NCBI RefSeq assembly: GCF_013402795.1
Contig: NZ_CP058595.1
Span: 159,501-223,500, forward strand
Direction of reading: 5' to 3'
Source of the DNA: Costertonia aggregata
GTDB taxonomy: Bacteria; Bacteroidota; Bacteroidia; Flavobacteriales; Flavobacteriaceae
DNA: 64,000 nt
Shown piece after piece: positions 2,082 to 44,369 of the stretch. Both the position numbers and the translations under genes were made by a program. How positions within the stretch are numbered: position 1 is the first letter of the stretch; the number at the start of each line of letters is the position of its first letter. Under the pieces are notes generated by a model, which ran no database searches, was not told the DNA's origin, and saw nothing but the letters and a program-made list of their open reading frames with translations.

Positions 2082-3296
2082 ATGAAACTGCACAGAAATT
2101 TGGTTTTTGCCGTTATAGACGCACTCAATTTGATATTTAATGAAGGGGAGTATGCCGACAAGGTCGTTCAAAAAGTATTAAAGTTCGATAAAAGATGGGG
2201 CTCACGAGATCGAGGCTTTATTGCCGAAACCACCTATGAAATGGTACGATACAAAAGATTATATACCGAAATAGCAGAAGTTAAAGCCCCATACAGCAGA
2301 CCCGACCTATTTCGAATGTGGGCGGTTTGGGCCGTTTTAAAAGGAATAACATTGCCCGATTGGAAACAACTGGAACCCACTCCCGAAAGACGTATCAAGG
2401 GGAAATTTGATGAACTTTCAAAAATAAGAAAGTTTAGGGAAGCCGTACCGGACTGGATAGATGAGCTCTGCGAAAAGTCGTTAGGCGCTAAGCTATGGAC
2501 TGCCGAAATCGCAAAGCTTAACGAGCCGGCAGAGGTCATTCTTCGCACCAACACTTTAAAGATCACCAAAGAAAAACTACGAAGGGTATTACTGGATGAA
2601 GGTATTGTTGTAGAACCCATTAAAGGATATCCTTTGGCTTTGAGTCTACCGGAAAGGGCGAACGTTTTTGTAACGGAGTCCTTCAAAAAAGGCTTTTTTG
2701 AGGTACAGGATGCCTCGTCCCAATTAGTCGCAGCATTTTTAGACGTAGAACCAGGGCAAAGAGTGGTGGATACTTGTGCCGGAGCGGGAGGAAAATCGCT
2801 TCATATGGCGGCTCTCATGGAAAATAAGGGGCAATTGATCGCTTTGGACATTTACAACAGTAAATTAAAAGAGCTGAAAAGACGTGCAAGAAGAAATGGC
2901 GCACACAATATTGAGCCTAGGGAAATCAGTTCTACAAAAGTGTTCAAAAAACTGTACGGCACAGCAGACAGGGTTTTGATAGACGCCCCTTGCACCGGAC
3001 TAGGTGTTATTCGAAGAAATCCGGACACCAAATGGAAAATGCAGCCAGATTTTCTTGAAAGAATTACCAAGACCCAAAAAGAAATCATACGCAACTACAG
3101 TAAAATCGTAAAACCAGGTGGTAAAATGGTCTATGCTACCTGCTCTATTCTTCCCCAGGAGAACAACGATCAGGTAAAGTCCTTTTTATCATCTGATGAG
3201 GGAAAAGAGTTCACCTTGGTAAAAGAAAATAAAATCTATGCTTCAAAAAGTGGGTTTGATGGATTTTACATGGCCTTGTTAGAGAAAGTGAAGTAA
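2082..3296 (+). CDS. RsmB/RsmF-family RNA (cytosine-5) methyltransferase
   Basis: A 404-residue S-adenosylmethionine-dependent m5C methyltransferase of the RsmB/NOL1/Nop2/Sun family, expected to modify rRNA in the cytoplasm. The SAM-binding motif I is DTCAGAGGKS at 230-239. Motif IV is DAPCTGLGV with Cys304, and motif VI is YATCSILPQEN with Cys354; these two cysteines are the paired catalytic/release residues known for the family. The N-terminal 130 residues are helical and NusB/RsmB-like but diverged. Which nucleotide is modified cannot be read from sequence. It is a stand-alone gene with its own promoter. Confidence 0.92.
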   Translation: MKLHRNLVFAVIDALNLIFNEGEYADKVVQKVLKFDKRWGSRDRGFIAETTYEMVRYKRLYTEIAEVKAPYSRPDLFRMWAVWAVLKGITLPDWKQLEPTPERRIKGKFDELSKIRKFREAVPDWIDELCEKSLGAKLWTAEIAKLNEPAEVILRTNTLKITKEKLRRVLLDEGIVVEPIKGYPLALSLPERANVFVTESFKKGFFEVQDASSQLVAAFLDVEPGQRVVDTCAGAGGKSLHMAALMENKGQLIALDIYNSKLKELKRRARRNGAHNIEPREISSTKVFKKLYGTADRVLIDAPCTGLGVIRRNPDTKWKMQPDFLERITKTQKEIIRNYSKIVKPGGKMVYATCSILPQENNDQVKSFLSSDEGKEFTLVKENKIYASKSGFDGFYMALLEKVK

Positions 3297-42036: not shown

Positions 42037-42157
42037 CTATTGCCAACAATGGCTCCTATGAAAAGCCATAGTCCAGTGTCTCAAAGATAATTAATATGTT
42101 GTTTAATCTTAAACCACCCTTTTTTTCTTTTAATATAACTTGCTCCGCATCCTATAT

Positions 42158-42285
42158 GTGATAGACCTTTTGGTCTTCACCGGCATCTGTATGATCATAA
42201 GTTAATCAGTCCGGTCACTTGCTAACCGATGTGATAGATCTTAAAAGCCGATCTTCACCCACATTGTTCTGTGATCTGGACTATG
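42158..42285 (-). ncRNA. Candidate IS110 bridge/seek RNA region
   Basis: Downstream of the transposase stop, in transcript sense, lie two near-identical hairpins: 42231-42258 and 42158-42180. Each has a GTGA-A-GATC/GACC arm pairing with GATC/GGTC-TATCAC, including the same unpaired A, and they differ mainly in the loop. Between them CGGT (42212-42215) pairs with ACCG (42225-42228). Conserved stems with variable loops in a non-coding end are what guide RNAs of IS110-family transposases look like. The exact RNA ends are unknown, and the function is inferred from the family. Confidence 0.4.
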
Positions 42286-42319
42286 TTACTTCTTGTTGAG
42301 CTTTGTTATCAATTTATAT

Positions 42320-43375
42320 TTATTCTATGACCCCTATTTGATAGGGAGTCTCCGTCTTTATTACTGCAAGGGTTCTGCTCAGTAGTTTTCTAGCTACCTT
42401 CACTATAATCGATTTAACGTTCTTGCCCCGGTGTTTTCTATAATACCCCTGCATCACGGGATCGGTTCGAATAGCTTGCCAAGACGCTTCTATAAAGTAA
42501 CTCCTCATCAAGCGGTGAGCACGCATGGTGATACCCGTATTGCGGAAAGTGTCGCCACTCTGGTAAACCCCAGGGGCCATGCCCACATAACCTGCCAAGT
42601 GCTTGATGTTCTTGAAACGGCGCAGGTCGCCCAGCTCACTTAAAATACCACTGGCGACTATGCCCCCTATCCCGGGAATACTCTTCAATAACTCAAAGTC
42701 CTTCTTATAATATTGCTTGGTGTACTTGCGAAGGCTCGTCGATACATCCCTGAACTCCTTGTCGATAAACCTGAAACTGCGCATACGGCTCGCAAGTACA
42801 ATATTGCACGGTTCGTAATCGAAGACCAACGTGTCCAACCAAGTACGGAACCTATGGCTCCAATGGTCATTGTCGAACTCCTCCGGTACCGTTATCCCGT
42901 AATACAACAACTGCATCTTGATATAACTCTTGACCTGGCGCATATCCTTGACCAGATCGTTACGCCTTCTAAAGAGACTTCGCAATTGTTCCCGCTTGGG
43001 GTCGGGCACTTGTATGCTCTCCAAACGACCATCTTTAAGCTCCCTGGCTATGAGCTGTGCATCTATCCTATCGGTCTTGGTATGGCGTTCCTTACCTCTC
43101 CTGAAAATATCCGCAGGGTTCACCACCAAAGAACGCCAACCATAACCCTCGAGGCAACGATGGGCATGGTAACCGCAACAGCCAGCTTCATAAGCTGTTG
43201 TAACATCGTAATCGGGATAATACTTCTCAACATAGTTTAGAAGCAGTTCAGGCTCGGGCGACATTGAAAAAGTCCTGCCGGAACTAAGGTCGGTAGCACA
43301 GTGGACCTTCCAGCTACGTTTGTGTATGTCGATACCAATGAATAACTTAGGTCTTGCAGTTTGTTGTGTTTCCAT
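42320..43375 (-). CDS. IS110-family transposase (DEDD plus Transposase_20)
   Basis: A 351-residue recombinase. The RuvC-like DEDD domain shows Asp16 in FIGIDIHKRSWKV, Glu63 in TAYEAGCCGYH, and Asp102/Asp105 in TKTDRIDAQLIAREL. The C-terminal Transposase_20 domain has SIPGIGGIVASGILSELGD, then HLAGYVGMAPGVYQSGDTFRNTG with the likely catalytic Ser273. All landmark residues are present and the frame is intact, so the element may be active. The long non-coding segment on its 3' side suggests the IS1111-like layout. Confidence 0.95.
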   Translation of the reverse strand: METQQTARPKLFIGIDIHKRSWKVHCATDLSSGRTFSMSPEPELLLNYVEKYYPDYDVTTAYEAGCCGYHAHRCLEGYGWRSLVVNPADIFRRGKERHTKTDRIDAQLIARELKDGRLESIQVPDPKREQLRSLFRRRNDLVKDMRQVKSYIKMQLLYYGITVPEEFDNDHWSHRFRTWLDTLVFDYEPCNIVLASRMRSFRFIDKEFRDVSTSLRKYTKQYYKKDFELLKSIPGIGGIVASGILSELGDLRRFKNIKHLAGYVGMAPGVYQSGDTFRNTGITMRAHRLMRSYFIEASWQAIRTDPVMQGYYRKHRGKNVKSIIVKVARKLLSRTLAVIKTETPYQIGVIE

Positions 43376-43437
43376 ATCTTTTGATTTTAACGGATCTTAA
43401 AGATACTCGACAGGCTGCTTTTTCATAGATGCTAAAC

Positions 43438-43527
43438 GTAATGCTGACTTTAGGGCATAATCGAGAGGCAGTGTACATTTATGAAGTCACTAAATCTTAT
43501 GGATTTCGCTTTGGAATAAAAAAGAAA
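43438..43527. repeat. Direct repeat, copy 1 (left of the MazE/MazF module)
   Basis: This roughly 90-nt segment, beginning GTAATGCTGACTTTAGGGCA and ending near TTTCGCTTTGGAATAAA, recurs at 44279-44369 in the same direction with five mismatches and one indel. It lies between the IS110 element and the toxin-antitoxin module. Confidence 0.8.
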
Positions 43528-43660: not shown

Positions 43661-43680
43661 TAACTACAACATAAAGTTAT
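43652..43680. promoter_or_regulatory. Probable autoregulatory operator of the toxin-antitoxin module
   Basis: ATAACTTT (43652-43659) and its exact reverse complement AAAGTTAT (43673-43680) are separated by 13 nt. The left arm covers the -7 box and the right arm includes the first bases of the antitoxin ATG. AbrB/MazE proteins bind such repeats as dimers, so autorepression is expected. Confidence 0.5.
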
Positions 43681-43924
43681 GGAAGCTGCAATCATAAAAA
43701 TCGGAAATTCTAAAGGTTTGCGTCTAAGCAAAACGATACTTGAAAAATACAATATTAAGGATAAGGTCGAAATGATTTTGGAAAAAGGACAAATAATCCT
43801 GAAACCAATAGATAGCCCTAGAAAAAATTGGGACAAAGCATTCGAAAAAATGCGCGAAAACAATGATGACCGTCTATTGTTCAACGATGTCTTCGAAGAT
43901 GAAAACTTTGAAGAATGGAATTAA
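43679..43924 (+). CDS. MazE/AbrB-type antitoxin
   Basis: An 81-residue protein with an N-terminal swapped-hairpin DNA-binding domain: AAIIKIGNSKGLRLSKTILEKYNI, the MazE/AbrB signature (KIGNSKG), then VEMILEKGQIILKPI. The C-terminal 35 residues are acidic (NNDDRLLFNDVFEDENFEEWN), as needed to wrap the toxin. It overlaps the toxin gene by 10 nt and sits behind a good promoter and operator. Confidence 0.92.
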   Translation: MEAAIIKIGNSKGLRLSKTILEKYNIKDKVEMILEKGQIILKPIDSPRKNWDKAFEKMRENNDDRLLFNDVFEDENFEEWN

Positions 43925-44238
43925 AACAATATTCCATAATACTCGTAAATCTTGACCCTACAATCGGTAGTGAAATTAAGAAAACACGACCATGTGTAAT
44001 ATTATCACCTAATGAAATAAACCGATTTTTAAATACGATTGTTGTTGCCCCTATGACAACTAATTTAAAAAAGTATCCGACCAGAATTCAAGTGGGGCAT
44101 AATAATAAAAAGGGGATGGTCGCCATCGACCAAATTCGGACAATTGATAAATCACGGATAATAAAAAAGTTTGACCGATTAACAAAATCCGAAATTCAAA
44201 ATTGTAAGGATGTTATCAAAGAAACATTCGTGGATTAA
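43915..44238 (+). CDS. MazF/PemK-type mRNA-cleaving toxin
   Basis: A 107-residue SH3-like endoribonuclease. The family signature is present: YSIILVNLDPTIGSEIKKTRPCVILSPNEIN, with the catalytic Arg in KKTRPCV, then TIVVAPMTTNLKKYPTRIQV, GMVAIDQIRTIDKSRIIKKF. It cleaves single-stranded mRNA at short sites in the cytoplasm when the antitoxin is lost. Start ATG overlaps the antitoxin stop by 10 nt. The module is bracketed by direct repeats, so it may be acquired; the cut site cannot be predicted. Confidence 0.92.
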   Translation: MELKQYSIILVNLDPTIGSEIKKTRPCVILSPNEINRFLNTIVVAPMTTNLKKYPTRIQVGHNNKKGMVAIDQIRTIDKSRIIKKFDRLTKSEIQNCKDVIKETFVD

Positions 44239-44278
44239 AAGCAGAACAGCATAAGATTTACGAATACAAAACCTGAAG

Positions 44279-44369
44279 GTAATGCTGACTTTAGGGCATA
44301 ATCTAGAGGCAGTGTATATTTAAGATGTCGCTAAATCTTATGGATTTCGCTTTGGAATAAAATAAGAAA
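44279..44369. repeat. Direct repeat, copy 2 (right of the MazE/MazF module)
   Basis: This segment matches 43438-43527 in the same direction at about 93 percent. It starts 40 nt after the toxin stop. It also contains TAAATCTTATG (44332-44342), an exact inverted copy of CATAAGATTTA at 44250-44260 just before the repeat, which copy 1 lacks on its left. Confidence 0.8.

What the first reader, a model, noticed from the sequence alone, without database searches (positions are those of the whole stretch)
42067..42319. Structured non-coding end of the IS110-family element: candidate bridge/seek RNA
Seen: downstream of an intact DEDD transposase, two hairpins with the same stem design (GTGA, unpaired A, GAYC stem) but different loops at 42231-42258 and 42158-42180, with a third small stem between them, and a 10-bp inverted repeat CATAGTCCAG/CTGGACTATG closing 42067-42285. 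Known: IS110-family recombinases are guided by an RNA from the non-coding end, in the 3' end for the IS1111 group. Inference: the two loops are guide loops for donor and target.
Basis: partly seen in the sequence, partly recalled or inferred. Interest (0 to 1): 0.66.

Follow-up and report, generated by a model that had tools for sequence, protein, structure and literature searches.

The report
Guide RNA of an IS1111-type transposon
The stretch after this jumping gene's transposase encodes a conserved folded RNA whose internal loops match the DNA it inserts into and the element's own ends, so it is a bridge/seek RNA of the recently described kind, here in marine flavobacteria and aimed at attC-like repeats.

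Summary
The element is a 1379-bp IS110-superfamily insertion sequence of IS1111 type (42055-43433, minus strand), with three near-identical copies in its genome. Its 3' non-coding region encodes a ~166-nt RNA (42291-42126) whose structure is supported by compensatory changes across 55 distinct relatives (93.8% of cells paired; 265 cells changed on both sides against 87 in shuffles). A blind covariation scan finds the target guides: the 5' strand of internal loop I (42268-42260) tracks the right insertion flank as its reverse complement, the 3' strand (42229-42224) tracks the left flank by identity; no permutation reached the observed match. Internal loop II carries putative donor guides matching the element's own ends. 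Corrections: (1) the guides are the strands of the internal loops, not the hairpin loops; (2) the 10-bp closing repeat pairs fully in 1 of 53 relatives, the real closing helix is local; (3) the third small stem is a single-sequence artefact. Targets are mostly ends of attC-like palindromes. Verdict: a well-supported new member of a known kind; transcription and function untested.

The parts
42055..43433 (-). Whole insertion sequence, 1379 bp (left end at 43433, right end at 42055)
   Evidence: Shared by three copies with different flanks; ends fixed by empty sites GCGGTT|ATACATTGTT and TTAT|AGCCATTGTT; 1379 bp
42320..43375 (-). DEDD transposase/recombinase gene, 351 aa
43417..43433 (-). Left end: 7-bp extension AGCATCT (43433-43427) plus subterminal repeat ATGAAAAAGC (43426-43417)
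42055..42066 (-). Right end: subterminal repeat GCTTTTCAT (42066-42058) plus 3-bp extension AGG (42057-42055)
42126..42291 (-). Bridge/seek RNA as modelled (RNA 5' end side at 42291; real transcript ends unknown)
   Evidence: covariance model R1, 153 bits; structure counts
42208..42282 (-). Domain I closed by helix P1: 42282-42278 with 42212-42208, and 42274-42271 with 42218-42215
   Evidence: 95.6% and 100% of cells paired, compensatory changes in 7 of 9 pairs; found without prompting by RNAalifold
42260..42268 (-). Right target guide (5' strand of internal loop I), AACAATGTG; [quoted passage not shown]
   Evidence: antidiagonal of the blind scan; own-flank match z = 8.9; contrasts 11:0
42231..42258 (-). 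Hairpin 1 with bulged A, cap of internal loop I (not a guide)
   Evidence: 92% of cells paired, 5 of 8 pairs with changes on both sides
42224..42229 (-). Left target guide (3' strand of internal loop I), TCGGTT; same sense as the left flank
   Evidence: diagonal of the blind scan; own-flank match z = 5.9; contrasts 10:4, not significant
42136..42204 (-). Domain II closed by helix 42204-42199 with 42141-42136
   Evidence: 97.5% of cells paired but only one-sided changes; not returned by RNAalifold
42183..42188 (-). Putative donor guide AGATGC, complementary to GCATCT of the left end
   Evidence: covariation only at left-end position +6 (z = 4.2)
42158..42180 (-). Hairpin 2 with bulged A, cap of internal loop II (not a guide)
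   Evidence: 89% of cells paired, 6 of 9 pairs with changes on both sides
42150..42155 (-). Putative donor guide ATAGGA, same sense as the right end plus the first flank base
   Evidence: the next RNA base shows weak covariation with right-flank position +2 (z = 3.5)
43434..43439 (-). Left target half at this insertion, ACGTTT
   Evidence: 4 of 6 match to the left guide
42045..42054 (-). Right target half at this insertion, AGCCATTGTT
   Evidence: 7 of 8 match to the right guide

Best explanation
The segment is the bridge/seek RNA gene of an IS1111-type element. The RNA lies on the transposase strand and has two stem domains, each with an internal loop capped by a GTGR...A-YCAC hairpin. [quoted passage not shown] Loop II probably reads the joined ends of the element. 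By analogy with the experimentally studied systems, the DEDD recombinase with this RNA brings target and circular donor together and recombines them at a short core that begins with A, inserting the element in one orientation, mostly at the end of attC-like palindromic repeats, without target duplication. Shown here: structure covariation, guide-target covariation, exact ends, empty sites. Inferred: transcription, processing, binding, recombination, and donor reading by loop II.
For: Three genomic copies with exact ends and empty sites; IS1111 layout of 7-bp and 3-bp extensions and 3' non-coding region; 93.8% of cells paired in 55 relatives with 265 compensatory cells against 87 in shuffles, independent consensus fold, strand shown by 124 G-U against 37 A-C cells; blind scan gives antidiagonal and diagonal runs in loop I; own-flank matches z = 8.9 and 5.9; paired contrasts 11:0 for the right guide; loci not used in the scan agree; the RNA model finds only the three elements in the genome.
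Against: No expression data. The left-guide contrast is not significant (10:4, p = 0.18). Donor guides are nearly invariant, so they hardly covary. The window's own copy matches only 4 of 6 on the left, a sister copy 1 of 6. Four Salegentibacter copies share a site that the guide fits poorly. The window sequence alone folds differently in domain I.
Confidence: 0.93

Rival explanations
1. Only domain I is the working guide, a seekRNA of about 80-100 nt; domain II is a precursor or protein-binding part and its resemblance to the element ends has another cause, with the ends recognised through the subterminal repeats and the flanks.
For: In the IS1111 elements studied, an 82-nt seekRNA was sufficient and target flanks around the donor were needed (PMC11187229). 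Donor covariation here is weak. L088 has one donor-guide strand replaced by a small hairpin.
Against: Domain II is as conserved as domain I, with compensatory changes in hairpin 2; both its loop strands match the two element ends at the expected places, and L039 and L045 change guide and left end together; the bridge RNA study reports donor loops in IS1111 elements (PMC11208160).
Confidence: 0.3
2. The structure is only a terminator or stabilising 3' UTR of the transposase mRNA, and the flank matches reflect co-inheritance of elements and repeat types.
For: It directly follows the stop codon on the same strand; related elements share guides and sites, so permutations overstate significance.
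Against: Closely related elements with different guides have correspondingly different flanks (11:0); the structure has two conserved domains with invariant unpaired stretches; the signal falls exactly on the two strands of one internal loop.
Confidence: 0.03
3. The inverted repeats act as DNA, as transposase-binding sites near the right end.
For: Palindromes near element ends often bind transposases (general knowledge).
Against: G-U pairs on the transposase strand exceed A-C cells 124 to 37, which fits RNA pairing rather than DNA palindromes; hairpin sequences change freely while pairing is kept.
Confidence: 0.02

Closest known systems
IS1111 seekRNAs, attC-targeting group (ISKpn4, ISPst6, ISPa25; PMC11187229, and the IS1111-attC group of Tetu and Holmes 2008 cited there)
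   Same: 3' non-coding region, subterminal repeats with 7-bp and 3-bp extensions, top-strand complement 5' of the bottom-strand match, no target duplication, insertion at one end of an attC or attC-like site
   Different: Bacteroidota hosts; no close sequence relative shown; short imperfect subterminal repeats; targets are attC-like only and do not fit the GTTRRRY box strictly
IS621 bridge RNA (IS110 group; PMC11208160)
   Same: Two internal loops, the first variable and covarying with the target, the second conserved and matching the donor; each loop split into two guide strands
   Different: RNA in the 3' end rather than the 5' end; order of the two target guide strands reversed; long subterminal repeats; no evident 5' stem-loop in the modelled stretch
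ISCro4 transposase (PDB 9t56)
   Same: Best solved protein relative, E = 2.2e-12, level with IS621 (8wt6, 2.3e-12)
   Different: Distant, about 50 bits, mainly the C-terminal domain; RNA not compared

Membership tests
IS110/IS1111 superfamily | DEDD N-terminal domain (PF01548) plus Transposase_20 (PF02371) | tested here: met
   E = 1.4e-16 and 2.6e-24, both above curated cut-offs; NF033542 above cut-off
IS110/IS1111 superfamily | G--P----SG motif in the C-terminal domain | tested here: met
   GMAPGVYQSG, read directly from the translation
IS1111 group | Subterminal inverted repeats with 7-bp left and 3-bp right extensions | tested here: met
   AGCATCT|ATGAAAAAGC ... GCTTTTCAT|AGG with ends fixed by empty sites; the repeat is 9-10 bp and imperfect, shorter than the usual 11-13 bp but within the 7-17 bp reported
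IS1111 group | Long non-coding region downstream of the transposase gene | tested here: met
   265 bp downstream (42319-42055) against 58 bp upstream (43376-43433)
IS1111 group | Transposase falls in the IS1111 clade of the phylogeny | not tested
   ISfinder reference set not at hand
Bridge RNA / seekRNA | Conserved secondary structure with two internal loops | tested here: met
   domain I and both hairpins also in the unprompted consensus; closing helix of domain II rests on conservation and one-sided changes
Bridge RNA / seekRNA | Guide strands that covary with the target | tested here: met
   strong for the right guide, weaker for the left
[quoted passage not shown]
   complementary antidiagonal at RNA 28-31, identical diagonal at RNA 64-66
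Bridge RNA | Second internal loop pairs with the joined element ends | tested here: inconclusive
   complementary to both ends but nearly invariant, weak covariation
Bridge RNA / seekRNA | RNA is transcribed and bound by the transposase | not testable with these tools
   needs small-RNA sequencing and co-purification
Bridge RNA / seekRNA | RNA-dependent circle formation and insertion | not testable with these tools
   needs a transposition assay
Target as true integron attC site | Palindromic site with GTTRRRY box, served by an integron integrase | tested here: inconclusive
   palindrome partners enriched (57% against 14%); GTTRRRY fits only in part; nearby tyrosine recombinase below every integrase cut-off

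The most novel reading that the evidence does not exclude
A flavobacterial clade of IS1111-type elements has specialised on the ends of attC-like repeats of an undescribed Bacteroidota integron-like system, with guides that have switched among the repeat-end types; and the target loop also pairs with the occupied left junction (left guide plus the AGCA that begins the element), which would explain why target flanks are needed for excision.
Probability: 0.35. Interest if true: 0.55.

Novelty: new member of a known kind. Interest (0 to 1): 0.4.

Why it matters
It extends RNA-guided IS1111 recombinases to a clade found mostly in flavobacteria, with a defined RNA model, exact ends, empty target sites and many natural guide variants: a ready set of orthologues for testing guide rules, and a probe for attC-like arrays in Bacteroidota. 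It confirms the published mechanism and does not change it.

Tried and rejected
Hairpin loops as guides: rejected. Third stem between the hairpins: single-sequence fold only (against 62). Rfam: nothing above a gathering score in the window. Orphan RNA copies in the genome: none, only the three elements. My first placing of the ends (target core TAGCAT) was rejected by empty sites GCGGTT|ATACATTGTT. The first alignment of the three copies had one in the wrong orientation, redone. The first script for loci outside the scan had a faulty pattern and printed nothing; redone, whose NEW flag mislabels some loci already used (L037, L117, L120), left out of my tally. A pattern count of attC-like sites in the arrays was too strict and found nothing; not used as evidence. 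A DNA fold of one empty attC-like site was better than shuffles (z = -3.6) but did not show the end-to-end palindrome, so it is not used as proof. Literature searches found no description of attC-like arrays or this IS1111 clade in flavobacteria, which is weak evidence of absence.

Full report
Anatomy. The transposase (42320-43375, minus strand, 351 aa) carries both IS110-superfamily domains and scores above NCBI's cut-off for 'IS110 family RNA-guided transposase'. Its nearest solved relatives by sequence are ISCro4 and IS621, both distant. The 3.9-Mb genome holds three near-identical full copies. Read in one orientation they share a stretch from AGCATCTATG to TTTTCATAGG with different flanks. 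Empty sites in this and other genomes read GCGGTT|ATACATTGTT and TTAT|AGCCATTGTT, which places the ends at 43433 and 42055: 1379 bp, no duplication. The left end lies 7 bp outside ATGAAAAAGC and the right end 3 bp outside GCTTTTCAT, the spacing described for IS1111 elements (PMC11187229). The long non-coding region lies downstream of the transposase gene, again as in IS1111.

RNA. A scan of bacterial genomes gave 80 relatives, 55-93% identical in the protein and nearly all from flavobacteria. Fifty-five distinct versions of the region were aligned by sequence alone. A structure of 32 pairs in five helices was counted on that alignment: 93.8% of cells pair (shuffles 81.4%, slid versions 24-43%), 265 cells have changes on both sides (shuffles 87), and no shuffle reached the observed covariation score. 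I drew that structure after looking at the relatives; as a check, RNAalifold, not told it, returns the closing helix of domain I and both hairpins. It does not return the closing helix of domain II, whose support is conservation with one-sided G-U changes only. G-U pairs exceed A-C cells 124 to 37, so the transposase strand is the RNA strand. The covariance model finds exactly the three element copies in the genome at 153 bits and matches in 14 of 151 genomes of the family sample, the window's own included.

Guides. For 49 distinct combinations of RNA and flanks, every variable RNA column was compared with every flank column. The clearest runs are an antidiagonal (RNA positions 28-31 with right-flank positions +6 to +3, complementary) and a diagonal (RNA positions 64-66 with left-flank positions -5 to -3, identical). 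These are the two strands of the internal loop around hairpin 1. Single isolated high values elsewhere rest on few sequences. Matches to the element's own flanks average 7.00 of 8 on the right (6.19 all against all; z = 8.9) and 3.98 of 6 on the left (2.91; z = 5.9), with 0 of 20000 permutations as high for either. These permutations ignore relatedness, so closely related transposases with different guides were paired: own flank better 11, swapped better 0, ties 7 for the right guide (p = 0.001); 10, 4 and 4 for the left guide (p = 0.18). The left guide is therefore less secure. Two elements on one Robertkochia contig (98% identical transposases) show the effect directly: guide AACACCG beside CGGTGTT, and AACAACG beside CGTTGTT. 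In 17 loci not used in the scan the right guide matched 8/8 in 12 (hand tally; some come from the same genome). The window's own copy matches 7 of 8 on the right and 4 of 6 on the left; its sister copies match 7 and 5, and 7 and 1.

Donor. Loop II carries AGATGC, complementary to GCATCT of the left end, and ATAGGA, identical to the right end plus the first flank base. Both are nearly invariant; only left-end +6 (z = 4.2) and right +2 (z = 3.5) covary at the expected places. Donor reading is therefore inferred mainly from complementarity and from the published systems (PMC11208160).

The 10-bp repeat CATAGTCCAG/CTGGACTATG pairs fully in one of 53 relatives; the same 5' strand pairs locally with GGACT at 42212-42208. 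The hairpin loops are not the guides. The small third stem is a single-sequence fold that pairs the left guide with part of the closing helix.

Target. The insertion point is mostly the end of a palindromic, attC-like repeat: left flanks find a partner upstream (10 or more of 14 bases) in 57% of sites against 14% of control positions. Four copies in one Salegentibacter genome share a site that the guide fits poorly. Near the copy at 1.759 Mb, minus-strand genes lie next to a divergent tyrosine recombinase with an empty attC-like site between them. This looks like a chromosomal integron, but the recombinase falls below every integrase cut-off, so I call the repeats attC-like only. IS1111 elements that target attC sites are already known (PMC11187229).

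Verdict. A real, well-supported bridge/seek RNA of an IS1111-type element: a new member of a known kind. Transcription, processing, binding, recombination and the role of loop II are unproven.

Noticed in passing
L104:13375-14250 (G000 1768375-1769250) and the genes to its left, about 1.760-1.768 Mb: A tyrosine recombinase (best NCBIfam: XerA/integron-integrase type, below cut-off) sits beside mostly minus-strand ORFs and an empty attC-like site at 1767593; the layout resembles a chromosomal integron in a Bacteroidota genome.
   Followed up: partly
window 43432-43527 and 44273-44369; L012-L017: Copies of a diverged palindromic repeat, 73-92% alike, scattered in the genome; the insertion sequence interrupts one of them.
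   Followed up: partly
window 43679-44238: Two short overlapping ORFs that look by eye like a MazE/MazF-type toxin-antitoxin pair, lying between the element and the next repeat as a gene cassette would. Not tested.
   Followed up: no
L062, L063, L064, L070: Four copies in Salegentibacter oa5 share one non-attC-like site that matches the guide poorly (6/8 and 0/6); the site is probably inside another repeated element.
   Followed up: no
L088:3611-3789: One donor-guide strand is replaced by a small CCCGCACGTGCGGG hairpin while the rest of the RNA is intact.
   Followed up: no
L037:316-484 and 3070-3238: Two copies of the RNA about 2.75 kb apart on one contig, with identical guides and both beside CGGTGTT flanks.
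   Followed up: no
window 42220-42223 and 43430-43433: The RNA bases after the left guide are almost always AGCA, the same as the first bases of the element; left guide plus AGCA would pair longer with the occupied left junction than with the empty target.
   Followed up: no
window 42043-42054; L002, L003: All three copies in this genome share the right flank AGCCATTGTTGG although their left flanks belong to different repeat types; GCGGTT-type empty sites elsewhere continue ATACATTGTT.
   Followed up: partly
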